A stretch of 64,000 nucleotides of DNA from NCBI RefSeq assembly GCF_900102055.1, contig NZ_FNBA01000001.1:248001-312000 (forward strand), read 5' to 3'. The notes below the pieces were generated by a model, which was given only the letters and a program-made list of their open reading frames with translations, did not search any database and was not told the DNA's origin. Below, one piece after another: positions 42,556 through 54,733 of the stretch (position 1 is its first letter; each line of letters begins with the position of its first letter). Origin of the DNA: Ulvibacter litoralis (GTDB lineage Bacteria > Bacteroidota > Bacteroidia > Flavobacteriales > Flavobacteriaceae). Position numbers and translations under genes: made by a program.

Positions 42556-43538
42556 AAAACCAAATAGAAATTTATCAAGCTCAAGATGGCTCTACTCAAA
42601 TTAATGTACAATTTGAGGAAGAAACGGTTTGGCTTACACAAGCGCAAATGGCCGAACTCTTTAATAAAGGAAGAACAACCATAACAGAGCATATTAATAA
42701 TATTTTTAAAGAAGGAGAGTTAACGGAAGATAGGGTATGTCGGGATTTCCGACACACCACACAACATGGCGCTATTAAAGGAAAAACACAATCTAAAAAC
42801 GTTAAATACTATAATTTAGATGTTATCATATCTGTAGGTTATAGAGTAAAATCAAAACAAGGCACACAATTCCGTATTTGGGCAACTCAAACCTTAAAAG
42901 AACATTTAGTTCAAGGATATACTATTAACCAAAAACGTTTAGAGCAAAAAGAACAAGAAGTAAAGTTGTTAAAAGACGGGATTCATATTTTAACCAGAAC
43001 AGTAAGCAAAGCCATAGAAGAAAAAGCTTCAGATAACATAATCTTAGAAACCTTTGCCAAAGGTTTAAGCCTATTAGATGACTACGACCACGAACAATTA
43101 GATGCTAAAGGTTTAACAACGAAAGAAGCAAATTACCCAAGTTTAAAAGAGTATCAAACACTTATAAACCAAATGCTTACTGAATTTGATTCTGATGTGT
43201 TTGGAAAAGAAAAAGACAAAAGCTTTGAAAGTTCGGTTGCCCAAATTGCAAAAGGATTTGGAGACGACGATTTTTACCCAAGCCTTGAAGAAAAAGCAAC
43301 AACACTTTTATATTTAGTAGTAAAAAATCACGCATTTGTAGATGGTAATAAACGAATAGCAGCAGCTTGTTTTTTAAAGTTTTTAGAACAAAACAAGATG
43401 CTTTTTAATGCTGAAAAACAACCTATAATCAGTAATGATACCTTAGCAAGTTTAACACTGTTTATTGCTTCAAGCAAACCAGAAGAAATGGAAACCGTAA
43501 AACGATTGGTGATTAGTGTATTAAACCGAAATAAATGA
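42546..43538 (+). CDS. RhuM family protein with C-terminal Fic/DOC domain
   Basis: A 330-aa protein. The RhuM domain (about residues 1-165) has ETVWLTQAQMAELFNKGRTTITEHINNIFKEGEL, RVCRDFRHTTQHGAIKGKTQSKNVKYYNLDVIISVGYRVKSKQGTQFRIWATQTL. The Fic/DOC part (about 200-325) carries VKNHAFVDGNKRIAAACFLKFL, an H-x-F-x-D-G-N-K-R active-site variant closer to Doc than to the HPFxxGNGR of AMPylating Fic proteins. The gene is embedded between hsdS and hsdR, with 4 bp overlapping hsdR. Such genes are common inside type I operons; the role is undetermined. Confidence 0.88.
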   Translation: MEIKNQIEIYQAQDGSTQINVQFEEETVWLTQAQMAELFNKGRTTITEHINNIFKEGELTEDRVCRDFRHTTQHGAIKGKTQSKNVKYYNLDVIISVGYRVKSKQGTQFRIWATQTLKEHLVQGYTINQKRLEQKEQEVKLLKDGIHILTRTVSKAIEEKASDNIILETFAKGLSLLDDYDHEQLDAKGLTTKEANYPSLKEYQTLINQMLTEFDSDVFGKEKDKSFESSVAQIAKGFGDDDFYPSLEEKATTLLYLVVKNHAFVDGNKRIAAACFLKFLEQNKMLFNAEKQPIISNDTLASLTLFIASSKPEEMETVKRLVISVLNRNK

Positions 43539-45997
43539 ACGAAGCACAAACCAAACACGATTTAATAGAACCAGCTTTGCGAGAAGCAGGTTGGGGCATT
43601 GTTGAAGGCAGTCGTCTGCGTTTGGAGTTTCCTATTACTAAAGGGCGTTTATTAGGCCAAAACAGACGTGCAACACCCCTTTTTGCAGACTACGTTTTAG
43701 AATACAAAAACAGACGTATTGGGGTTGTTGAAGCCAAAAAAAGAGATTTATACTACACCGATGGTGTAGGCCAAGCCAAAGACTATGCGGAACGCTTAAA
43801 TATTCGTTTTACCTATGCTACCAATGGATTGCAAATCTATGGCATGGATCTAGAAGAAGGTACTGAAGGTGATGTAACCAACTACCCTACTCCAGACGAG
43901 CTTTGGGAAATGACCTACCCTACTCCTAAAGAAGAGTACAAAGTTGAAATTGCCAATTGGAAAGAACGCTTATTCGCTATCCCTTTTGAAGACAGAGGCG
44001 GTACTTGGCAACCTAGATATTACCAACAAAATGCTATTGCTAAAGTGTTGGAAGCGGTTTCAGAAAAAAAAGACAGAATACTATTAACATTAGCAACAGG
44101 AACAGGAAAAACAGCCATCGCTTTTCAAATTGCTTGGAAACTATTTCATGCCAAGTGGAATTTAAAACGGGATGCTTCCAGAAGTCCAAGAATTTTATTT
44201 TTGGCAGATAGAAACATATTAGCAGACCAGGCTTTTAATGCGTTCAATGCATTTGATGTTATAGATGAAAATATTAAAGTACGTATTCGCCCTTCAGAAA
44301 TAAAAAAGAAAGGACGTATTCCAAAAAACGGAAGCATCTTTTTTACCATTTTCCAGTCTTTTATGGCAGGAAATAGCGCAATTTCAAACATTGAAGAAGA
44401 AAACAACCTTTATAAAGCAGCAGAAGAAGAAGCAAACTACGGGGAGGCAAAACCCTATTTTGGAGAATACCCGAGAGACTTTTTCGATTTTATCATCATT
44501 GATGAGTGTCATCGTGGTGGCGCTAACGATGAAAGTACGTGGCGGGATATTTTAGAATATTTTTCACCTGCTGTACAATTAGGTTTAACTGCGACTCCCA
44601 AACGCGATGTAAATGGAGATACCTACGATTATTTTGGAGACCCGGTTTATATTTATTCCTTGAAAGAAGGGATTAACGATGGTTTCTTAACCCCATTTAA
44701 AGTAAAGGAAATTGATACTACAATTGATGAATACACCTATACGGGCGATGATGATATTGAAAGTGATATTGAAATTCCGATTGGCACTAAATTTACAGAG
44801 GAACAGATAAACAAGATTATTGAAATAAAGGCTCGCGAAGAATATCGCGTAAAAATCTTTATGGATATGATTAATCAGAAACAAAAAACACTGGTTTTTT
44901 GTGCCACGCAAATTCATGCTGCGGCAATTCGAGATTTAATCAATCAATACGCTACAAGCAAAAACCCTAATTATTGTCATAGAGTGACTGCAGATGATGG
45001 AAATATGGGAGAAAACCACCTTCGCGATTTTCAGGATAATGAGAAAAATATTCCTACCATACTTACTACTTCACAAAAACTAAGTACGGGTGTTGATGCA
45101 CCCGAAATAAGAAATATTGTATTGCTACGTCCTGTAAAATCGATGGTAGAATTTAAGCAAATTGTAGGTCGTGGAACTCGTTTGTTTGATGGGAAGGATT
45201 ATTTTACTGTCTATGACTTTGTAGATGCGCATGAGCACTTCAATGACCCAGCATGGGACGGTGAGCCGTTGGATCCACCCGAACCAACTACAGGAGGAGA
45301 GAAAAAACCTTGTAATGTATGTGGCGAGAAAAAATGTATTTGTCTGAAACCAGAACCTGAAATATGCGAAGTGTGTGAGAACGATCCTTGCGTTTGTGAT
45401 ACTCCTCCACGCAAAATGATAAAGGTAACTTTGGCGAAAGGCAAAGAGTTAGAATTAGATTCTATGGTAAAGACTTCGTTTTGGAGTCCGTCGGGAACAC
45501 CAATTTCTGCTACCGAATTTGTAAAACAATTGTTTGGCGATATTCCTGGTTTCTTTACTTCGGAAAAAGAATTACGAACAATTTGGAGTGTGCCGAGTAC
45601 CCGAAAAAAATTACTCACTGAATTAGAAGAAAAAGGGTATACCAATGCGCAATTAGAAGATTTACGAAATTTGGTGCATGGAGAACATAGTGATCTTTTT
45701 GATGTATTAAATTATGTTGCATATCACAAAGGGTTAGTTCCAAGATTAGACCGTGCAGACAACGCCAGAATTCATTTGGGCGATTACAATCCAAAACAAC
45801 AAGAATTCTTAAACTTTGTATTAGAACAATATGTGAAAGAAGGGGTAAATGAACTGGATGATGCAAAACTCCCCGACTTATTAGAATTAAAATACAAAGC
45901 AATCGCCGATGCAAAACGAGAGCTAGGAGATATTAAATCGATCCGAAACTCATTTATCGGGTTTCAGAAAACAATCTATGGAGAATGGGTTGGGTGA
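43535..45997 (+). CDS. hsdR: Type I restriction endonuclease subunit R
   Basis: An 820-aa restriction motor/nuclease. The N-terminal nuclease (about residues 30-80) has DYVLEYKNRRIGVVEAKKRDLYYTDGVGQAKDYAE, a D-x(n)-E-x-K set. The SF2 helicase has Walker A LLTLATGTGKTAIAFQIAWKL, DEAD-type IIDECHRGGAND, LTATPKRD and motif VI QIVGRGTRLFDGKDYF. An unusual Cys-rich insert at about residues 588-627 (KPCNVCGEKKCICL, EICEVCENDPCVCD) looks zinc-binding. The gene is separated from hsdS by the RhuM genes but overlaps the last of these. Confidence 0.96.
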   Translation: MNEAQTKHDLIEPALREAGWGIVEGSRLRLEFPITKGRLLGQNRRATPLFADYVLEYKNRRIGVVEAKKRDLYYTDGVGQAKDYAERLNIRFTYATNGLQIYGMDLEEGTEGDVTNYPTPDELWEMTYPTPKEEYKVEIANWKERLFAIPFEDRGGTWQPRYYQQNAIAKVLEAVSEKKDRILLTLATGTGKTAIAFQIAWKLFHAKWNLKRDASRSPRILFLADRNILADQAFNAFNAFDVIDENIKVRIRPSEIKKKGRIPKNGSIFFTIFQSFMAGNSAISNIEEENNLYKAAEEEANYGEAKPYFGEYPRDFFDFIIIDECHRGGANDESTWRDILEYFSPAVQLGLTATPKRDVNGDTYDYFGDPVYIYSLKEGINDGFLTPFKVKEIDTTIDEYTYTGDDDIESDIEIPIGTKFTEEQINKIIEIKAREEYRVKIFMDMINQKQKTLVFCATQIHAAAIRDLINQYATSKNPNYCHRVTADDGNMGENHLRDFQDNEKNIPTILTTSQKLSTGVDAPEIRNIVLLRPVKSMVEFKQIVGRGTRLFDGKDYFTVYDFVDAHEHFNDPAWDGEPLDPPEPTTGGEKKPCNVCGEKKCICLKPEPEICEVCENDPCVCDTPPRKMIKVTLAKGKELELDSMVKTSFWSPSGTPISATEFVKQLFGDIPGFFTSEKELRTIWSVPSTRKKLLTELEEKGYTNAQLEDLRNLVHGEHSDLFDVLNYVAYHKGLVPRLDRADNARIHLGDYNPKQQEFLNFVLEQYVKEGVNELDDAKLPDLLELKYKAIADAKRELGDIKSIRNSFIGFQKTIYGEWVG

Positions 45998-46046
45998 TGG
46001 TTAGAGTGTTTTAAAAAAAGATTATATAATCTATAAATTAAGAAAT

Positions 46047-48029
46047 ATGAATTTAGATAAGTTTTATTCTTTAAGAACAAGTTTTACTGTAATAGCAATT
46101 ACTGGTAGAGTAGGGTCTGGATGTTCTCAAATTGCCGATAAATTAGCTAAAGAAGATTTTAATCAAAATTTAAATTCTTTAATAATTAAAAACTCTTTAA
46201 ACCCTGAGAATATAAAATCTAATATTTGTACTAACTATTTATCTCACCCCAAAAATTGGACAGCATTCAAGAAAATTCTATATAAGGACATACTATTATT
46301 TCATGTTTTATTTTATGCAGCCCAAAAATCTGAATCGATTCTTGATACAATTGAAAAAATTATAGAGATTATTTGTCAAAATGATCCGGAACTCAATCCA
46401 GAGATTTTAGGTAATAGATTTACAAATAAAGATGATAAACTGATATTATTTGAGAAATTGAAAGGTTTACTATTGGCTAGTGATATGTGGTATTTAAAGA
46501 TTAAAGAATTTAAAAAAGAAGATCTTAATTCCTGTCTATCTAATAAAAAGAACTATAGAAAATTATATGAATATTATTTTAATGAGCATGAAGAATTATC
46601 TTTAAAATTTTATGAAATTCTTAATAATCATAATTTTATAAAAAGAACTCGTTTTATACATGATATTGCAAATAATCTTAGAAATTTTGGATCTGTTGTT
46701 ACTAATTATTCTGCAGTAAAAGGTAAAGAGTACAGTTATAATCATATCTATACCGTTGCAGAAACAATTAATCGAGTAATTAAATGCTGGAGATACGTTA
46801 AGAAAGGTAAAACAAAGACCAGAATAGTTATTGATTCTTTAAAAAATTCTCGTGAAGCTATGTACTTTAAAGAGAAGTTTGCTGCTTTTTATATGATTGC
46901 CACAAATAAGTCTGAAGAAGAACGAATTGAATATCTTAAAAGTAAACTAATATCAAAGAAAGTTCTCGATAGTACTATTCAAGACATCTATAATCTAGAT
47001 GAAAGTGAATACAAAGGAGAGGAAGTAAATAATGGCGAATTTGCATCTCCTGATATAATAAACTGTATCCAAATTAGTGATTATCACATATTTTTTTCTA
47101 ATAAGCAATACGGAAGCCTTGAACCTATAACTGATGGGTTATTTAAAAATAATAATTATCAATTTATTTCTTTAGATAGACAACTGGTAAAACTAGTTTC
47201 TCTAGTTCAGCAGCCAGGACTTATTACTCCTTCTGCAATTGAAAGATCTATGCAAATAGCTTTTAATGCTAAATTAAGCTCAGGATGTATTTCAAGACAA
47301 GTAGGTGCACTAGTAACTGACCAGAACTTTTCTATAAAAGCAATAGGCTGGAATGATGTTCCACAAAATCAATTACCCTGTAATTTAAGAAATGCTCAAG
47401 ACTTAATCAATAAAAATAATACCAATCAATTCAGTGATTTCGAATTAGGACAAGATAATTCTAACACATATAGTGATGATCAAACTTTTCACGATAAATT
47501 TAAATCAGAAGTTAATGAAAAACACTTGAGTCTAGACCTAGAGGGACGCAATTGCTCTTTCTGTTTTAAATCTTTTCATAATGCTTTTGAAGGGGAAAAA
47601 AATCAAGTACATACACGTTCACTTCACGCTGAAGAAAATGCTATGCTTCAAATCAGTAAGTCCGGAGGTCAAGGAATTAAAGGAGGTAAGCTATTTACTA
47701 CGGCAAGTCCATGTGAACTATGTGCTAAAAAAGCATTTCAATTAGGAATTATGGATATTTATTTTATCGATCCTTATCCTGGTATTTCAAAACGTCATGT
47801 TCTTAAAGGTGGTGTAAATATTAATCCAAGTCTAATGATGTTCCAGGGAGCGGTAGGTAGAGCTTATCATAAACTATATGAGCCTTTTATGGCTTATAAA
47901 GATGAATTAGCTATTTTAACAGATATTAGACCTAAAGCCAAACCAGAAAAACTTCTCAGTAAGTTAACAAACGATAAAACACTGCAAAAAAAGTTATTAG
48001 ATACAATTATAAATCATAAAGAATATTAA
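46047..48029 (+). CDS. Anti-phage dCTP deaminase (P-loop + dCMP-deaminase fold, AvcD-like)
   Basis: A 660-aa protein. Residues 15-30 (VIAITGRVGSGCSQIA) form a P-loop, and the N-terminal 350 residues are kinase-like. The C-terminal deaminase has the zinc set LHAEENAMLQ (His-Ala-Glu near 527) and TTASPCELCAKK (P-C-x2-C near 554), plus a Cys cluster GRNCSFCFKSFHN. This architecture matches the reported anti-phage dCTP/dCMP deaminases that drain deoxycytidine nucleotides during phage replication. The gene is much more AT-rich than hsdMSR, which suggests acquisition by transfer. Two bases separate it from the Mrr gene. Confidence 0.9.
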   Translation: MNLDKFYSLRTSFTVIAITGRVGSGCSQIADKLAKEDFNQNLNSLIIKNSLNPENIKSNICTNYLSHPKNWTAFKKILYKDILLFHVLFYAAQKSESILDTIEKIIEIICQNDPELNPEILGNRFTNKDDKLILFEKLKGLLLASDMWYLKIKEFKKEDLNSCLSNKKNYRKLYEYYFNEHEELSLKFYEILNNHNFIKRTRFIHDIANNLRNFGSVVTNYSAVKGKEYSYNHIYTVAETINRVIKCWRYVKKGKTKTRIVIDSLKNSREAMYFKEKFAAFYMIATNKSEEERIEYLKSKLISKKVLDSTIQDIYNLDESEYKGEEVNNGEFASPDIINCIQISDYHIFFSNKQYGSLEPITDGLFKNNNYQFISLDRQLVKLVSLVQQPGLITPSAIERSMQIAFNAKLSSGCISRQVGALVTDQNFSIKAIGWNDVPQNQLPCNLRNAQDLINKNNTNQFSDFELGQDNSNTYSDDQTFHDKFKSEVNEKHLSLDLEGRNCSFCFKSFHNAFEGEKNQVHTRSLHAEENAMLQISKSGGQGIKGGKLFTTASPCELCAKKAFQLGIMDIYFIDPYPGISKRHVLKGGVNINPSLMMFQGAVGRAYHKLYEPFMAYKDELAILTDIRPKAKPEKLLSKLTNDKTLQKKLLDTIINHKEY

Positions 48030-48031
48030 AT

Positions 48032-48955
48032 ATGCCCATACCAAAACACTTTGAAATCCGTGTTCCTGCCTTGCAGTTGCTTCAAGACAAAGGAACATTA
48101 AAACTAAATGAAGTTGTAGCTTTTCTGGGTGAATATTTTCAACTTACCGAAGAAGATATGTCGGAAATGTATCCTTCTGGTAACGGTCATATATTCTACG
48201 ATCGAGTTAGCTGGGCATTGAGTTATTTGAATATGGCAGATTTACTAGATAAGCCAAAAAGAGGGTTCTATAAGATCAATGATTCCGGAAATCTTCTTTT
48301 ACAAACTCCCCAAAAGATAAATGATTATGTGGATACTAAAGTAAATGAGCGAGAAGTACCGAGAAAGTCCAAGAAAAACACAAAATTAGAAGAAGAAATA
48401 AATGAATCCACCAATAGTGGCACTCCATCTGAGAAATTATACAGTTCTTTTGAGAAAATAAAGTCAGCTCGGAAAACAGAGATTTTAAATATGATTCTAA
48501 GTAAAACTCCTTATGAGTTTGAAAATCTAGTAGTACAACTTTTACAGCAAATGGGGTATGGAGGCGAAATTAAGGATTCTGGTTTGGTCACTAAGGCTTC
48601 CAATGACGGCGGTATTGATGGAATAATAAAAGAAGACGAATTAGGTTTAGGTAGAATTCATATACAAGCGAAAAGATACGATCATAAAAATGGTGTTGGT
48701 AGAGACGATATTCAAAGGTTTGCCGGAGCCATGTTAGGAGCTCCAATGAGTAAAGGAGTTTTTATCACCACCTCCTACTTTTCGAAGGGAGCTATTGAGT
48801 ATGTACTTAAATTAAACAATGCAACAATTATCCTAATCGATGGGGACCAATTAGCCGAATATATTTACAAATTTGGTTTAGGAATGCAAGTGGTACAGAC
48901 TATAGAAATAAAGAAACTAGATACTGATTTCTGGGATACGATGAAGGATAATTAA
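48032..48955 (+). CDS. Mrr-type restriction endonuclease
   Basis: A 307-aa modification-dependent or type IV-like endonuclease. The N-terminal Mrr_N winged-helix region (about residues 1-90) contains LKLNEVVAFLGEYFQLTEEDMSEMYPSGNGHIFYDRVSWALSYL. The Mrr_cat nuclease (about 158-290) has EFENLVVQLLQQMGYGGEIKDSG, GGIDGIIKEDELGLGRIHIQAKRYDH and GVFITTSYFSKGAIEYV, in which D, Q and K are the expected catalytic set. It starts 2 bp after the deaminase stop, so the pair is probably an operon. Confidence 0.94.
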   Translation: MPIPKHFEIRVPALQLLQDKGTLKLNEVVAFLGEYFQLTEEDMSEMYPSGNGHIFYDRVSWALSYLNMADLLDKPKRGFYKINDSGNLLLQTPQKINDYVDTKVNEREVPRKSKKNTKLEEEINESTNSGTPSEKLYSSFEKIKSARKTEILNMILSKTPYEFENLVVQLLQQMGYGGEIKDSGLVTKASNDGGIDGIIKEDELGLGRIHIQAKRYDHKNGVGRDDIQRFAGAMLGAPMSKGVFITTSYFSKGAIEYVLKLNNATIILIDGDQLAEYIYKFGLGMQVVQTIEIKKLDTDFWDTMKDN

Positions 48956-48977
48956 TTTTTATGTCAGAGTATACTTT

Positions 48978-49028
48978 CCCCTGGCGCGCTTTTGCAAAGC
49001 GTGACGTTTCTACCGCACTTTATAAAAC
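48978..49028 (+). repeat. Left copy of direct repeat flanking the sigma/dCas12f module
   Basis: This imperfect direct repeat pairs with 51542-51593: about 44 of 52 aligned positions agree, with one single-base gap. It contains the hairpin CGCTTT-TGC-AAAGCG. The two copies are 2.5 kb apart and bracket the HTH, sigma and Cas12f-like genes and the candidate guide RNA. Confidence 0.8.
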
Positions 49029-49124
49029 CTGCCTTACTCTTGTAAAGCGCATCCCCTTTACCGTATAGAACAAACAGTTAGATGATGCAACAGCGGGAAA
49101 TAAGTCTCAATATAGAGATATCGT

Positions 49125-49358
49125 TTAACAGTCTATTTTTTGAAAAAAATCATATAACGTAATATCTCTAGCTTCGCAAATTCGATATAAAGTTTCCACA
49201 GGAATTCTATAATTATGTATATTTTTTATCTTCCTTACTGTACTTTCATCAATAGTGTGCAAGATAGCAAAGGCATTTTGTGATTTACCTTCCTTTAGCC
49301 ATGGTTGCAGCCACTCCTTTGTTATATAGTTACATATTTCAACATTAATATCAGTCAT
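49125..49358 (-). CDS. Short HTH (XRE/Cro-like) regulator
   Basis: A 77-aa protein made almost entirely of an HTH: ITKEWLQPWLKEGKSQNAFAILHTIDESTVRKIKNIHNYRIPVETLYRICEARDITLYDFFQKIDC. ESTVRKIKNIHNYRIPVETLYRICEARDIT fits the XRE/Cro-like pattern of recognition helix plus final helices. It is transcribed divergently from the sigma gene, with a palindrome between them, which suggests it controls the sigma/Cas12f module or itself. Direct sequence evidence for its target is only that palindrome. Confidence 0.82.
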   Translation of the reverse strand: MTDINVEICNYITKEWLQPWLKEGKSQNAFAILHTIDESTVRKIKNIHNYRIPVETLYRICEARDITLYDFFQKIDC

Positions 49359-49393
49359 AGTAACAAAGGAAATGGATGACTAACAAAATACTT

Positions 49394-49407
49394 CGGTCGT
49401 TCGACCG
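49394..49407. promoter_or_regulatory. Palindromic operator-like site
   Basis: CGGTCG and CGACCG form a perfect 6-bp inverted repeat with a TT centre in the gap between the HTH gene and the sigma gene. It lies about 19-32 bp upstream of the putative -7 box at 49426, where a -33 element would be, so a bound regulator could block or replace promoter recognition. Confidence 0.6.
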
Positions 49408-49425
49408 TAATTTAAAATTATTTAT

Positions 49426-49433
49426 TATATTTG
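49426..49433 (+). promoter_or_regulatory. Putative -7 promoter element of the sigma/dCas12f operon
   Basis: TATATTTG matches the TAnnTTTG consensus and is 121 bp upstream of the sigma ATG. The palindrome at 49394-49407 overlaps its -33 position. Confidence 0.5.
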
Positions 49434-49540
49434 ACTCATAATTACATATTTGAGAGACTTCTTAAAGTAAAATATTAGAAGCATTCACTTTGGGTATTAC
49501 ATAAAATCCATTAGAATGCAAGTACAACAACCACCAATGT

Positions 49541-49548
49541 AAAGGAGG
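49541..49548 (+). promoter_or_regulatory. Strong Shine-Dalgarno for the sigma gene
   Basis: AAAGGAGG lies 6 bases before the ATG at 49555. It is a near-ideal anti-16S match, unusual in Bacteroidota, whose mRNAs mostly lack one. Confidence 0.8.
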
Positions 49549-49554
49549 GCTTTC

Positions 49555-50331
49555 ATGGCGAACACTAAGTTAGAACTATTAAAAAAAGGATGTCCTTCCG
49601 CCTTTGCAGATATTTATGCCAAACACAGCAGAAATATCTTCTGGGTGGGCAAGCGATTAATCGATGATGAGTTTGTAATAGAATCATTGGTACAGGATGC
49701 TTTTTTAAAATTATGGCTCTATAGAGAAACAATAGAATCTCCCAAGCATATTTTCTTCTTTTTACGATTTGTGATGAAAAGAGAGTGTATCTCCTACTAT
49801 ACCCGTCCCAAAAATAATTTTTCTAGAAACATACAATCGTTAGAGAATTTTCAAAACTATCAAGACTATATGGTAGGATACGACCCCCTCAATGGAACAG
49901 AAAATCAAAAACTCCAAGAGATGAACCAAAAAGACTTCGATAGAATCAAAATAGTATTGCCCCTATTAAATGCAAAAAGCAGCCACCTCATCGAGCTCTG
50001 CCTAAAATATGGCTTTCAATACAAGGCCATTTCCGAGGCAATGGGAACGAGCCTTAAAGAAACCTGTAACGATATAAAAAAGGCCATTAGCGATATCAAA
50101 AACATCATAAACCAAGGAGACAAGCTTAATTCCAAACAAAGTACAGTCAAACTAAAAATTCAAGAAGGGATAACACCGCAACAGGCAGAAGTACTAAAAC
50201 TACGATGTGAAGGGAACTGTACTTTTGCTTTCATTGCCACAACGCTCAACCTTACTCAAAAAGAAGTGCACAGCGAGTTTGTGGCCGCATATAAAATAGT
50301 ACAAGACAAATACCAACCACAATTAGCTTAA
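49555..50331 (+). CDS. Atypical ECF-like sigma factor with an extra C-terminal HTH
   Basis: A 258-aa sigma-70-type factor. Region 2 is at about residues 8-82: AFADIYAKHSRNIFWVGKRL, ESLVQDAFLKLWLYRETIESPKHIFFFLRFVMKRECISYY. A first region-4-like HTH is at about 128-186 (LIELCLKYGFQYKAISEAMGTSLKETCNDIKKAISDI). A second HTH follows at about 204-252 (ITPQQAEVLKLRCEGNCTFAFIATTLNLTQKEVHSEFVAAYKIV). Ordinary ECF factors are about 160-200 aa with one region 4, so the extra module is notable. Its stop is one base before the Cas12f-like start. I infer that it supplies promoter-opening activity to an RNA-guided complex. Confidence 0.88.
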   Translation: MANTKLELLKKGCPSAFADIYAKHSRNIFWVGKRLIDDEFVIESLVQDAFLKLWLYRETIESPKHIFFFLRFVMKRECISYYTRPKNNFSRNIQSLENFQNYQDYMVGYDPLNGTENQKLQEMNQKDFDRIKIVLPLLNAKSSHLIELCLKYGFQYKAISEAMGTSLKETCNDIKKAISDIKNIINQGDKLNSKQSTVKLKIQEGITPQQAEVLKLRCEGNCTFAFIATTLNLTQKEVHSEFVAAYKIVQDKYQPQLA

Positions 50332-50332
50332 T

Positions 50333-51430
50333 ATGGAAACAGCTACAATGAAACGAACACGAAAAATCCAGCTATGGATCGACCTTCCCACCAAGGAGGA
50401 GCGGAAAATAGCACTAGATACACTATACCAATGGCAAAACAGGTGCTTTAGAGCGGCCAACCTTATCGTTACACATCTGTACGTACAGGAAATGATCAAG
50501 GAATTCTTTTACCTATCCGAAGGAATACAATATAAACTGGCAGACGAAAAAAAAGTTGAGGACGGAATCTTGCAACGCTCTCGTATCAATACAACCTATC
50601 GGGTGGTATCAAATCGATTTAAAGGCGAAATCCCAACCAACATATTGTCCACACTCAACAAAACCTTGGTAACCTCCTTTACCAAAGATAGACCTGCATA
50701 CTGGAAAGGCGAATGCTCCTTAAAAAACTTCAGAAGAGATATGGCATTGCCGTTCAGCTTAGAGCTGGTAAGTGGCCTGCATTATGATGACCAAAAAAAT
50801 GCATTCTGCTTTAAGCTGTTCCAGATCCCTTTTCGCACCTATTTAGGGAAAGATTTAACAGATAAACGAAAGCTATTAGAACAGGTAATAACAGGGAATA
50901 CCAAACTCTGTACATCACATATCAAACTAAAAAATGGCAAGATATACTGGCTCCCAGTATTTGAAATTGAAAAGGACGAACACCGTCTGAGACCTGAAGT
51001 AATAGCGGAAGCATCCCTATCCCTCGAATATCCACTTATAGTAAAAACAGCCAACAAGAAACTAACTATTGGCAGCAAGGAAGAGTTTATGTACAGAAGG
51101 CTAGCCATACAGGCAGCTAGAAAAAGGGCACAAGAAGGAGCTACTTTTTCCAAATCGGGAAAAGGAACCAAAAGAAAATTAAAAGCAATGCACAGCTTCC
51201 ACCAAAAGGAAAATAAATATGTGCAACAACGTATCCACTTCTATAGTAAAAGCCTGATCGACTTTTGCATCAAACATCAAGTAGGAACACTCATTTTAAG
51301 AAACCAGGAAGATAAAATTGGAATAGCCAAAGCAGAAAAATTTGTCCTAAGAAACTGGAGCTATTACGACCTCATGGTCAAAATAAAGTACAAAGCAGAA
51401 AAAGCAGGCATTGAACTTATTGTCGAATGA
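50333..51430 (+). CDS. Nuclease-dead Cas12f/TnpB-like protein (dCas12f)
   Basis: A 365-aa RNA-guided nuclease relative. The C-terminal half has the RuvC layout of TnpB/Cas12f: LSLEYPLIVK (RuvC-I), KYVQQRIHFYSKSLIDFCIKHQVGTLILRNQEDK (bridge and RuvC-II) and NWSYYDLMVKIKYKAEKAGIELIVE. Aligned to VDLG and VVxEDL of active enzymes, the catalytic Asp is S228 and the catalytic Glu is R323. The chain stops at E365, before the CxxC zinc finger and third RuvC Asp. The protein should bind guide RNA and DNA but not cut. It starts one base after the sigma stop, and the guide-like RNA begins directly after its stop. A sigma-linked dCas12f acting in RNA-guided transcription has been reported in flavobacteria (recalled, not checked). 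Confidence 0.88.
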   Translation: METATMKRTRKIQLWIDLPTKEERKIALDTLYQWQNRCFRAANLIVTHLYVQEMIKEFFYLSEGIQYKLADEKKVEDGILQRSRINTTYRVVSNRFKGEIPTNILSTLNKTLVTSFTKDRPAYWKGECSLKNFRRDMALPFSLELVSGLHYDDQKNAFCFKLFQIPFRTYLGKDLTDKRKLLEQVITGNTKLCTSHIKLKNGKIYWLPVFEIEKDEHRLRPEVIAEASLSLEYPLIVKTANKKLTIGSKEEFMYRRLAIQAARKRAQEGATFSKSGKGTKRKLKAMHSFHQKENKYVQQRIHFYSKSLIDFCIKHQVGTLILRNQEDKIGIAKAEKFVLRNWSYYDLMVKIKYKAEKAGIELIVE

Positions 51431-51540
51431 TACGCTGATGCGTAACGAGGGTGCTTGTACACCCGTAAGGTGAGGCCAGTTAGAGCACTCACTAAATGTA
51501 AAAAGCATATACAACGCGTGGACTCTCTTATTTTGATAAG
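51431..51540 (+). ncRNA. Candidate guide RNA for dCas12f (scaffold, crRNA-like tail, guide)
   Basis: The segment starts one base after the dCas12f stop and can fold into consecutive hairpins. They are TACGC/GCGTA with a TGAT loop (51431-51444), GGGTG/CACCC with a CTTGTA loop (51449-51464) and GTGAG/CTCAC (51470-51492, long loop). The stem, CTTGnA loop and following TAA resemble the pseudoknot stem of Cas12f tracrRNA. The tail AAATGTAAAAAGCATATACAAC, cut at 20 bases or fewer as AAAGCATATACAAC, ends like the Cas12f crRNA repeat (…GCAAC). The candidate guide is 51516 onward, starting GCGTGGACTCTC. The 3' end is uncertain, because 51515-51552 is itself self-complementary. Confidence 0.65.
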
Positions 51541-51541
51541 A

Positions 51542-51593
51542 CCCCTGACGCGCTTTTGTAAAGCGTGACAATTCTAGTGCGCTTTTATAAAAC
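51542..51593 (+). repeat. Right copy of direct repeat flanking the sigma/dCas12f module
   Basis: Partner of the repeat at 48978-49028. It contains the hairpin CGCTTT-TGT-AAAGCG and directly follows the candidate guide. Whether it is a mobility footprint, an RNA 3' structure or a target-like site cannot be decided from the sequence. Confidence 0.8.
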
Positions 51594-51623
51594 AGCATTC
51601 CATCAAAACCACAAAGAAGTAGT

Positions 51624-51689
51624 ACCCCCTAGATACCCCCTAGATACCCCCTAGATAAGCCATGGATAAGCCATGGATAAGCCCATAAA
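51624..51689. repeat. 11-bp-period tandem array
   Basis: Three exact units of ACCCCCTAGAT (51624-51656) are followed by two exact units of AAGCCATGGAT and a degraded third, AAGCCCATAAA (51657-51689). The 11-bp period is kept across the change of unit, close to one helical turn, so factors bound to each unit would face one side of the DNA. Confidence 0.9.
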
Positions 51690-51977
51690 ACCTCATAAAC
51701 CTAAAAGGATCTTAAATACAGGCATTCAAGGGATAATTCTTAACACCTCTAAACGTGCCATAAGCCCTGTAAATACGGTACTTTTAGCCAATCTAACCCA
51801 AATAAATAAAACCCAATAGAGACCCAACTTGTGAAATATATCCAAAAAAGGCACGAACAAATTATTATCCCTACTCGTGTATACGTATCGTATATTCTAA
51901 AAGGCAGGCTCGAACCGTCATGTTATGAATAAGAAACAAAACCCAAACTATTCAATACTCACCTTCCCAAAACCTAA
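51690..51977. other. AT-rich intergenic region
   Basis: Between the 11-bp array and the first interspersed repeat. A short palindrome-like run, GTGTATACGTATCGTATA, lies near 51880. No ORF or RNA gene is supported. Confidence 0.5.
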
Positions 51978-52093
51978 GTGTCTTTTTCTTTGGTTCGTTT
52001 CTTTTGGACAAGCAAAAGAAATGAACAGAACACCCTTAAAACCCAATGAACATCATCATTTCATAATCACAAATCACCAGTCACAAGTCACTC
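51978..52093. repeat. Interspersed repeat copy 1 (partial)
   Basis: Only the 3' part of the family is present, from GTGTCTTTTTCTTTGG through the hairpin TTTCTTTTG/CAAAAGAAA and then the AATCACCAGTCACAAGTCAC tail that also lies between later copies. Confidence 0.8.
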
Positions 52094-52128
52094 AAAAAAC
52101 AACTCTAAAAACACGATACCAATCCGTT

Positions 52129-52296
52129 CCCTAAGCGTAGAATACCTATCGAAAAAATCGAAACAGGACGACGAAGGAGGACGCGGTTTTTTGGATAGGG
52201 GTTTGAAAGACGGCACGGATTTCAAAATTCCCCAGCGTGGGTGTCTTTTTCTTTGGTTCGTTTCTTTTGGACAAGCAAAAGAAATGAACAGAACAC
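52129..52296. repeat. Interspersed repeat copy 2
   Basis: A full unit: the CCCTAAGCGTAGAATACC head, a GACGACGAAGGAGGACGCGG core, a GACGGCACGGATTTC block and the TTTCTTTTG/CAAAAGAAA hairpin. Spurious ORFs run through it on both strands. Confidence 0.9.
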
Positions 52297-52459
52297 AAAT
52301 AGAACCGCAGCATAAACTCATTATATAGGCTGTTTAACCTTCCATTTTAAAGTCAAGAACTAAATACGTTTACATAAAGTATTTGTGACATCGGCAGCTT
52401 CATCAATTATGCATTGATTGAAATACAACCAAAAAAACTCTACCGAAATCACCTTTTTT

Positions 52460-52603
52460 TTATATGTCTTTTTTATAAAACAAAATTGAAATAATAATAA
52501 ACCCAATTCCTGTAAGCGCTGGAGGGAGCATTTTTCCAATAATTCCAAGTATCACCATGACTATGGCAATTAGCACCAGTGTAATTAATAGCATGTTCTT
52601 CAT
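52460..52603 (-). CDS. 47-aa two-TM membrane protein
   Basis: Found by direct reading. KNMLLITLVLIAIVMVILGIIGKMLPPALTGIGFIIISILFYKKDI has two hydrophobic helices joined at KMLPPALTG and a basic end. The MLPPALTGIGFI segment suggests the hydrophobic hairpin of small flavobacterial membrane proteins. It lies 22 bp downstream of the DUF547 gene on the same strand, so the two may share a transcript. Function unknown. Confidence 0.75.
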   Translation of the reverse strand: MKNMLLITLVLIAIVMVILGIIGKMLPPALTGIGFIIISILFYKKDI

Positions 52604-52624
52604 GTTTATTTTATTTAATGTAAA

Positions 52625-53383
52625 TCAATTATTTAAATTCCATTTGTAATCTTTATAGTTAATTTTAGTATTTGCATTGATTTTTACAGTTGAGTATTTG
52701 TTTAAAAAATCAATCAAGCTTCCTTCATTTTTAAAATCACCAGAAAACCAATCAAATATTTTTGAAATTTCAATTTTATCGGCAGTAATACTATTTTTGG
52801 TTGTATCGTTAATAAAAGAAATTGTCGAACTTTCTAACTGCTTTTCAATCTTGGCTTCAGTATAGGCTTCATTCAACAAATTAGGACACGAATAAGATGC
52901 GCAATTAATGGCAAAATGAATTCGAGGTTCATTCATTTTCCTTAAAATTTTATGTTCAATTTCACCTAGACTATAGGCGCTATTTTCTAACATAATAAAA
53001 TCTTGATCCCAAGGTTTTTTAATGTCCTTTATGCTTTCAACTGGATAATTATCTAAAATTAATTTCACCGTAAATGCATTATATGCATTAATCCAATACG
53101 CCAAAGTTGCATTTTTTGACCATGATTTTTTAGGAAGGTTTTCGGCTAAAACATCTAAATAAGATTGAAGTGCTGCTGTATCGTTCTTAAACCCCAGGTA
53201 ATCTACTTTTCCCGAGCTTGAAACATGTTTTTGCAATAAATCATCCCACTTTTGGTGACTTATGGTTGCTACATTATCACTAATTTCTAAATTGGAACTA
53301 TACGCTAAATCTGGAATTGAATTTCCGCTTTCTGCACAAGAGATAAATGGCATAAAAAGTAGAATTAAAATATATTTTCTCAT
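52625..53383 (-). CDS. DUF547 domain lipoprotein
   Basis: About 252 aa from the ATG at 53383, which gives a lipobox: MRKYILILLFMPFISCAESG. The DUF547 core is WDDLLQKHVSSSGKVDYLGF, LAYWINAYNAFTVKLILDNYPVESIKDI and HFAINCASYSCPNLLNEAYT, whose Cys-x3-Cys is conserved. The longer frame from 53473 would add 30 residues without a signal and is unlikely. DUF547 proteins are related to ancient glutaredoxin/thioredoxin-like folds and have unknown function. Confidence 0.93.
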   Translation of the reverse strand: MRKYILILLFMPFISCAESGNSIPDLAYSSNLEISDNVATISHQKWDDLLQKHVSSSGKVDYLGFKNDTAALQSYLDVLAENLPKKSWSKNATLAYWINAYNAFTVKLILDNYPVESIKDIKKPWDQDFIMLENSAYSLGEIEHKILRKMNEPRIHFAINCASYSCPNLLNEAYTEAKIEKQLESSTISFINDTTKNSITADKIEISKIFDWFSGDFKNEGSLIDFLNKYSTVKINANTKINYKDYKWNLNN

Positions 53384-53541
53384 TTTATAAGGATTTAATT
53401 GTTCTATGTATTGGACTCCATTATAATACAAACCTAACAACTGTTTAGAAAAAAAGGGTTCAGCTACATTCAATATATGTATAAGTGTTTTGAAATATTC
53501 CCTCCGATTTGTCAGTTTTAAGAAAAGTCAAAAAAATCATC

Positions 53542-53709
53542 CCTAAGCGTAGAATACCCATCGAAAAAATCGAAGCAGGACGACGTAGGAGGACGCGGTT
53601 TTTTGGATGGGGGTTTGAAAGACGGCACGGATTTCAAAATTCCTCAGCGTGGGTGTCTTTTTCTTTGGTTCGTTTCTTTTGGACAAGCAAAAGAAATGAA
53701 CAGAACACC
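53542..53709. repeat. Interspersed repeat copy 3
   Basis: Full unit, core subtype 1 (left arm CGAAAAAATCG, right arm GCGGTTTTTTGGAT). It ends in the TTTCTTTTG/CAAAAGAAA hairpin. It starts the tandem block of five copies spaced 216-285 bp apart. Confidence 0.9.
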
Positions 53710-53784
53710 GTTAATCCCTCAGAATCCTCTTCATTTCCTAACCACAAATCACCAGTCACAAGTCACAAATCACCAGTCACAAAT

Positions 53785-53951
53785 CCCTAAGCGTAGAATA
53801 CCCATCGAAAAAACCGAAACAGGACGACGCAGGAGGACGCGGGTTTTTCGATAGGGGTTTGAAAGACGGCACGGATTTCAAAATTCCCCAGCGTGGGTGT
53901 CTTTTCTTTGGTTCGTTTCTTTTGGACAAGCAAAAGAAATGAACAGAACAC
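53785..53951. repeat. Interspersed repeat copy 4
   Basis: Core subtype 2 (left arm CGAAAAAACCG, right arm GCGGGTTTTTCGAT), whose arms pair better than in subtype 1. Confidence 0.9.
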
Positions 53952-54069
53952 TGTTAATCCCTCAGAACTCTATAAACACTACGTCAGTAATCTAGCTTAA
54001 GAAAAGATTCCGTAAAATTCAAAAAAGAAAAGACATAATTGAAACCTAAAACACCCATACAAACCTTTT

Positions 54070-54238
54070 CCCAAAGCGTAGAATACCCATCGAAAAAATC
54101 GAAGCAGGACGACGAAGGAGGACGCGGTTTTTTGGATAGGGGTTTGAAAGACGGCACGGATTTCAAAATTCCCCAGCGTGGGTGTCTTTTTCTTTGGTTC
54201 GTTTCTTTTGGACAAGCAAAAGAAATGAACAAACACCC
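54070..54238. repeat. Interspersed repeat copy 5
   Basis: Subtype 1, with CCAAAGCG at its head in place of CCTAAGCG. Confidence 0.9.
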
Positions 54239-54319
54239 TTAAAACCCAATGAACATCATCATTTCATAACCACAAATCACCAGTCACAAGTCACAAGTCA
54301 CTAATCACAAGTCCCCAAT

Positions 54320-54488
54320 CCCTAAGCCTAGAATACCCATCGAAAAAACCGAAACAGGACGACGAAGGAGGACGCGGGTTTTTCGATAGGGGTTTGAAAG
54401 ACGGCACGGATTTCAAAATTCCTCAGCGTGGGTGTCTTTTTCTTTGGTTCGTTTCTTTTGGACAAGCAAAAGAAATGAACAGAACACC
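54320..54488. repeat. Interspersed repeat copy 6
   Basis: Subtype 2. Followed by AACCCAATGAACATCATCAT, a spacer also seen after copies 1 and 5. Confidence 0.9.
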
Positions 54489-54534
54489 CTTAAAACCCAA
54501 TGAACATCATCATTCATAATCACAAGTCCCCAAT

Positions 54535-54702
54535 CCCTAAGCGTAGAATACCCATCGAAAAAATCGAAGCAGGACGACGTAGGAGGACGCGGTTTTTTGG
54601 ATGGGGGTTTGAAAGCCGGCACGGATTTCAAAATTCCCCAGCGTGGGTGTCTTTTTCTTTGGTTCGTTTCTTTTGGACAAGCAAAAGAAATGAACAGAAC
54701 AC
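54535..54702. repeat. Interspersed repeat copy 7
   Basis: Subtype 1, 31 bp before the terminator of the tRNA gene. Confidence 0.9.
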
Positions 54703-54733
54703 TCTTAAAATCGCAGCATAAACTTATTGCATA

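What the first reader, a model, noticed from the sequence alone, without database searches (positions are those of the whole stretch)
49555..51430. Sigma factor translationally coupled to a nuclease-dead Cas12f/TnpB-like protein
Two genes, one base apart, encode an ECF-like sigma factor and a 365-aa Cas12f/TnpB relative. In the second protein the RuvC-I Asp aligns with S228 and the RuvC-II Glu with R323, and the chain ends before the zinc finger and third RuvC Asp, so cutting should be impossible. Linking a nuclease-dead RNA-guided DNA binder to a sigma factor suggests a machine that brings RNA polymerase to guide-matched DNA. I recall a report of such dCas12f-sigma systems in flavobacteria, but this locus may be a divergent or undescribed member. 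The family, active-site loss and coupling are read from sequence; the mechanism is inferred.
Basis: partly seen in the sequence, partly recalled or inferred. Interest (0 to 1): 0.96.

Follow-up and report, generated by a model that had tools for sequence, protein, structure and literature searches.

The report
RNA-guided sigma factor that starts transcription
These two genes and a guide RNA just after them form a new member of a recently solved bacterial machine in which a disabled CRISPR-type protein uses an RNA guide to bring RNA polymerase to chosen genes; its guide matches a control sequence in front of a nutrient-uptake (SusC) gene in the same genome.

Summary
Window 50333-51430 is a full-length (about 70% identical) relative of the solved 'Nuclease-deactivated Cas12f' (PDB 9n9c, 9n9m, 9n9o, 9n9q). 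The gene before it, 49555-50331, matches the 'RpoE' chain of 9n9q. The RuvC Asp is S228, the RuvC Glu is R323, and the chain ends before the zinc finger and third Asp. The same gene pair, 1-2 nt apart, occurs in many flavobacteria, including Allomuricauda (Flagellimonas) taeanensis. So this is a new member of the known dCas12f-sigmaE RNA-guided transcription system, not a new kind.

Its best genome match (15 of the first 16 nt, with 5'-G) lies on contig C44, upstream of a SusC start. That site is one arm of a covarying ~133-nt hairpin leader that can also pair into an intrinsic terminator. I found no Rfam entry for it. The leader precedes SusC or ECF-sigma genes in 34 of 201 sampled family genomes, including all 8 that carry dCas12f. 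The window's own sigma gene has lost it.

I infer that guided initiation at the leader bypasses the terminator. This is untested, and guide and leader do not co-vary locus by locus.

The parts
49125..49358 (-). small HTH (Cro/C1-like) protein, 77 aa, divergent from the sigma gene; the same position is occupied by an HTH gene in many relatives
   Evidence: HTH_26 4e-4, just below the Pfam cut-off; 83% identical HTH in L031, whose own HTH_26 hit is 3.4e-6
49426..49433 (+). putative sigma-A -7 box TATATTTG, shared promoter region
   Evidence: matches the flavobacterial consensus TAnnTTTG (PMC9723704); region collinear with relatives; not tested
49465..49497 (+). remnant left flank of the structured leader; the leader itself and its terminator are absent here
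   Evidence: alignment with L031, L002 and L003: homology stops at about 49497 and roughly 200 bp are missing before the sigma start
49555..50331 (+). sigmaE (RpoE-like ECF sigma factor), 258 aa
   Evidence: PDB 9n9q_C RpoE 1.8e-91; TIGR02937 4e-17
50333..51430 (+). dCas12f, nuclease-dead Cas12f homologue, 365 aa (D to S228, E to R323, C-terminal truncation)
   Evidence: PDB 9n9c/9n9m 4.7e-179; Foldseek 3.3e-45 to 9n9m
51446..51515 (+). guide-RNA scaffold (GAGGGTGCTTGTACACCC...CACTCACTAAATG...GCATATACAAC), three conserved short helices
   Evidence: conserved downstream of dcas12f in nearly all relatives; helices kept with pair changes, e.g. AT/GC/GT and CG/TA/TG
51516..51534 (+). guide GCGTGGACTCTCTTATTTT; conservation between loci ends here
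   Evidence: best genome match G000:C44:1769-1786, 15 of the first 16 nt

Best explanation
The locus encodes a dCas12f-gRNA-sigmaE RNA-guided transcription activator. dCas12f binds the RNA made from 51446-51534, forms an R-loop at DNA matching the guide next to a 5'-G without cutting it, and the co-translated sigmaE recruits RNA polymerase, which starts downstream of the R-loop. Shown here: gene identities, active-site loss, conserved coupling, conserved guide RNA, and a single good match in the genome, in the leader of a SusC-type gene. Inferred from the solved relatives: R-loop, sigma recruitment, initiation. Further inferred: because the target is the 5' arm of the leader's terminator, guided initiation just downstream makes an mRNA that cannot form that terminator, so the SusC gene is switched on. 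In relatives the same leader also precedes sigmaE, giving self-activation; in this genome the sigmaE copy is lost, so the operon is probably expressed without attenuation.
For: Full-length matches of both proteins to chains of one deposited complex, 9n9q; Foldseek top hits are dCas12f-gRNA-DNA and dCas12f-gRNA structures. The solved species' locus (L021) has the same order of HTH, leader, sigmaE, dcas12f, gRNA. Its guide TTGTGGGATA matches a 10-nt seed with 5'-G upstream of a susC. gRNA scaffold conserved and helical. Window guide hits C44 upstream of a SusC start; about 0.006 chance 18-mers at one mismatch or fewer would be expected in this genome (own arithmetic), and the site is a leader at E=5.5e-30. 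Leader precedes sigmaE or susC in dcas12f genomes.
Against: No expression, binding or TSS data. The guide differs from the C44 site at position 7 (A for G). The SusC frame on C44 stops after about 52 codons on a 3.5-kb contig ending in repeats, so the target gene may be broken or misassembled. Guides match their own locus's leader no better than other genomes' leaders (mean 11.22 vs 11.16 of 16), so the match is family-wide conservation, not shown co-evolution. The paper behind 9n9c/9n9q is not in the library; TSS and TAM details are from memory.
Confidence: 0.87

Rival explanations
1. The dCas12f is an RNA-guided repressor (TldR-like): it blocks transcription at the leader, and sigmaE is only a neighbour.
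For: TldR proteins are RuvC-dead TnpB relatives that repress target genes (PMC13418256). The target lies in a leader that a sigma-A promoter would transcribe.
Against: sigmaE is coupled 1-2 nt away in 49 of 51 loci and sits in a solved complex with dCas12f (9n9q). The leader already carries its own terminator.
Confidence: 0.06
2. The gRNA guide acts on leader RNA, not DNA: it pairs with the terminator 3' arm or the left hairpin arm and works as a trans anti-terminator.
For: The guide sequence is nearly the terminator 5' arm, so it is complementary to the terminator 3' arm TAAGTTGAGTTCCACGCC and to the left arm GCTCACG. The guide's A7 fits the terminator 3' arm better than the DNA target.
Against: Solved relatives form R-loops on DNA. 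The taeanensis guide targets a DNA site outside the leader.
Confidence: 0.07
3. Decayed transposon/TnpB relic with no function.
For: The catalytic residues and C-terminus are lost; the system is sporadic, absent from 3 same-genus and 14 same-family genomes; the target SusC frame is cut short.
Against: Intact 365-aa frame, 81% mean column identity over 35 relatives across many genera, conserved gRNA and gene spacing. No IS200/605 ends seen.
Confidence: 0.04

Closest known systems
dCas12f-sigmaE RNA-guided transcription system of Allomuricauda/Flagellimonas taeanensis (PDB 9n9c, 9n9m, 9n9o, 9n9q)
   Same: both proteins homologous over full length (about 70% and 55% identity), same gene order and 1-nt spacing, same gRNA scaffold position, target upstream of a SusC gene with 5'-G
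   Different: the guide is the common flavobacterial GCGTGG-type matching the leader's terminator arm, whereas the taeanensis guide matches a site downstream of the leader; the leader upstream of sigmaE is lost here
TldR (RuvC-dead TnpB-like RNA-guided repressors)
   Same: nuclease-dead, RNA-guided, domesticated
   Different: independent inactivation from TnpB, repress rather than activate, no sigma factor (PMC13418256)
Cas12f nucleases (Al3Cas12f, CnCas12f1, AsCas12f)
   Same: fold and RNA/DNA-binding parts (Foldseek 1e-20 to 1e-16)
   Different: keep D/E/D and the zinc finger, and cut DNA
Attenuator/riboswitch-type leaders
   Same: mutually exclusive hairpin and intrinsic terminator in a 5' leader
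   Different: no Rfam match; the terminator arm is also the guide's DNA target

Membership tests
dCas12f-sigmaE RNA-guided transcription system | Cas12f homologue lacking RuvC D and E and the C-terminal zinc finger | tested here: met
   S228, R323, ends at 365; same in 35 relatives
dCas12f-sigmaE RNA-guided transcription system | genetically coupled ECF sigma factor homologous to the solved RpoE chain | tested here: met
   1.8e-91 to 9n9q_C; spacing 1-2 nt in 49/51 loci
dCas12f-sigmaE RNA-guided transcription system | dedicated gRNA encoded just downstream of dcas12f | tested here: met
   scaffold 51446-51515 and guide 51516-51534; expression not tested
dCas12f-sigmaE RNA-guided transcription system | guide-matched target with 5'-G upstream of a SusC-type gene | tested here: met
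   G000:C44:1769-1786, 15 of the first 16 nt, preceded by G, SusC start about 280 bp downstream; downstream frame truncated
dCas12f-sigmaE RNA-guided transcription system | guide-dependent recruitment of RNAP and TSS set by distance from the R-loop | not testable with these tools
   needs ChIP-seq/RNA-seq
Active Cas12f/TnpB nuclease | RuvC D-E-D catalytic triad | tested here: not met
CRISPR-Cas type V-F | CRISPR array next to the effector | tested here: not met
   no CRISPR-like array in 48900-52400; a single gRNA unit only, and no second scaffold in the genome
TldR | derived from TnpB, acts as repressor, paired with a non-sigma target/effector gene | tested here: inconclusive
   closest by sequence to dCas12f/Cas12f rather than TnpB; activity not tested

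The most novel reading that the evidence does not exclude
Across flavobacteria the dCas12f guide is the terminator arm of a widespread, so far unnamed attenuator leader in front of SusC and ECF-sigma genes. RNA-guided initiation at that arm bypasses the terminator, so one guide switches on a whole set of leader-controlled genes and its own operon. The system grew out of this older leader/HTH module.
Probability: 0.35. Interest if true: 0.75.

Novelty: new member of a known kind. Interest (0 to 1): 0.52.

Why it matters
RNA-guided transcription initiation is a very recent discovery, with structures released in December 2025. This locus adds a member with a readable guide and a named target. It also ties most guides of the family to a conserved attenuator-like leader, which gives a simple, testable rule for what these systems turn on and how (terminator bypass, self-activation). 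The guide-to-target rule would also help anyone using the system as a programmable activator.

Tried and rejected
Rfam search of leader-bearing loci: no hit to any RNA family at the leader. RNAalifold on the MAFFT alignment gave a wrong short-range structure because the variable arms are misaligned; arms were instead compared directly. Locus-by-locus co-evolution of guide and leader was tested and not found. Searches for leaders matching aberrant guides: the Psychroflexus guide found only a second gRNA copy, and the Leeuwenhoekiella guide found no convincing site. Minimum-free-energy fold of the gRNA alone is not significant (z -0.4). No intact relative on plasmids or phages. Paper searches did not find the dCas12f-sigmaE publication.

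Full report
Observation. The upstream protein is an ECF sigma factor and aligns over 254 residues with the RpoE chain of PDB 9n9q (1.8e-91). The downstream 365-aa protein aligns over its whole length with 'Nuclease-deactivated Cas12f' of 9n9c, 9n9m, 9n9o and 9n9q (4.7e-179) and more weakly with active Cas12f nucleases. In those alignments the RuvC-I Asp faces S228 and the RuvC-II Glu faces R323, and the chain stops before the zinc finger. Among 35 relatives position 228 is always S or T and position 323 is never Glu. An AlphaFold2 model (mean pLDDT 76) gives the deposited dCas12f-gRNA-DNA complex as top Foldseek hit, 71% identity.

Relatives. A scan of one genome per species gave 59 related stretches, nearly all in Bacteroidota, 56-87% identical over full length, including Allomuricauda taeanensis, whose protein matches the solved chain. 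The sigma stop lies 1-2 nt before the dcas12f start in 49 of 51 measurable loci. The gene is absent from 3 genomes of the host's genus and 14 of its family and present in 8 of 201 sampled family genomes, so it is sporadic and probably moves horizontally.

Guide RNA. Immediately after dcas12f every complete locus but a few carries a conserved stretch of about 70 nt, GAGGGTGCTTGTACACCC...GGTGAGG...CACTCACTAAATG...GCATATACAAC, with three short helices kept through pair changes. What follows ACAAC is the guide. In the window it is GCGTGGACTCTCTTATTTT (51516-51534). More than half of the relatives, in many genera, have nearly the same guide, GCGTGGGCTCTCTTATTTT, and sequence conservation ends after it. 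A few genomes carry several gRNAs with different guides. The host genome has one scaffold.

Target. In the host genome the guide's only close match is G000:C44:1769-1786 (GCGTGGGCTCTCTTATTG; 15 of the first 16 guide nt, preceded by G), about 280 bp upstream of an ORF that starts like a SusC receptor. That ORF ends after about 52 codons on a 3,480-bp contig ending in repeats, so the gene is either broken or cut by assembly.

A structured leader. The target is part of a conserved element of about 133 nt (model R1). It is a long hairpin whose outer stem differs from copy to copy yet stays paired: 56 distinct arm pairs, 95% paired against 59% (maximum 66%) when arms are exchanged between copies. 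Its right arm GGCGTGRG also pairs 8 of 8 (G-U allowed) with a segment 58-62 nt downstream that is mostly followed by a T-run, in all but a couple of some 50 copies, with compensating changes such as GGTGTGG/CCACACC. The right arm can therefore pair either inside the hairpin or into an intrinsic terminator, as in attenuators. No Rfam family matches. Copies lie about 180-260 bp upstream of sigmaE or 300-1000 bp upstream of SusC-type receptors (TonB Plug and CarboxypepD_reg domains), sometimes upstream of other ECF sigma genes, usually with a divergent small HTH gene. In 201 family genomes the leader occurs in 34 and dcas12f in 8, and all 8 are among the 34 (Fisher p = 3e-7). The leader thus exists without dCas12f, and dCas12f occurs with the leader.

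The window's own promoter. Aligned to Cellulophaga baltica (L031, whose HTH gene is 83% identical to the window's) and two Aequorivita loci, the window is collinear through a TAnnTTTG-type -7 box (consensus in PMC9723704) and the left flank of the leader. It then lacks roughly 200 bp containing hairpin and terminator. The operon has probably escaped the control that its relatives keep.

Guide and leader. Guides of the common type match the sigmaE leader at 13-16 of 16 positions in 18 of 32 loci, against about 6.7 for letter-shuffled leaders. But own-locus pairs are no better than pairs between loci (11.22 vs 11.16), so I claim a family-wide match, not co-evolution. In taeanensis the guide (TTGTGGGATA...) does not match the leader; its best other match (10-nt seed, 5'-G) is on the same contig, about 240 bp downstream of a leader and about 260 bp before a susC start. 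In both arrangements transcription started at the guided site would lack the terminator's 5' arm.

Mechanism. Shown: components, active-site loss, coupling, guide, target, leader. Inferred from solved relatives: R-loop without cutting, sigmaE recruitment, RNAP loading. Inferred here: terminator bypass and, in relatives, self-activation. From memory only: 5'-G target-adjacent motif and TSS set by distance from the R-loop, reported for this family by the group that deposited the structures; the paper is not in the library.

Verdict. The added value is the guide, its target, and the link to a conserved attenuator-like leader, which may or may not be already described.

Noticed in passing
43535-48955: Defence-type genes directly upstream of the locus: HsdR-like restriction subunit, anti-phage dCTP deaminase (NF041025, 9.6e-101), Mrr-type restriction endonuclease.
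   Followed up: partly
51978-54721 and G000:C44 (L066): A repeated intergenic family (..CTTTGGTTCGTTTCTTTTGGACAAGCAAAAGAAATGAAC.. and neighbours) occurs several times in the window and downstream of the C44 SusC start; it may have broken the assembly there.
   Followed up: no
48978-49035 and 51542-51599: Two 78% identical copies of a GC-rich segment (CCCCTGRCGCGCTTTTGYAAAGCGTGAC) flank the HTH-sigmaE-dcas12f-gRNA unit, possibly marking the ends of an inserted piece.
   Followed up: no
L201-L229 and others: The leader element occurs in 26 of 193 sampled family genomes without dCas12f, upstream of SusC or FecI-like sigma genes with a divergent HTH gene: a candidate new structured RNA/attenuator class.
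   Followed up: partly
L158, L160, L169: The leader precedes ECF sigma factors only distantly related to sigmaE (24-39% identity), hinting at other sigma factors in the same circuit.
   Followed up: no
L181 (G028:C1:482521): A second, orphan gRNA in Psychroflexus tropicus with nearly the same guide and a remnant of the dcas12f 3' end.
   Followed up: no
L040, L044, L049, L050, L053, L028: Tandem gRNAs with different guides downstream of dcas12f (Leeuwenhoekiella, Paenimyroides, Echinicola), i.e. several targets per system.
   Followed up: partly
L021 2304-3916, 7714-9357: In A. taeanensis the unit lies between mobilization-like genes and a tyrosine recombinase next to two tRNA genes, as on an integrated mobile island.
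   Followed up: no
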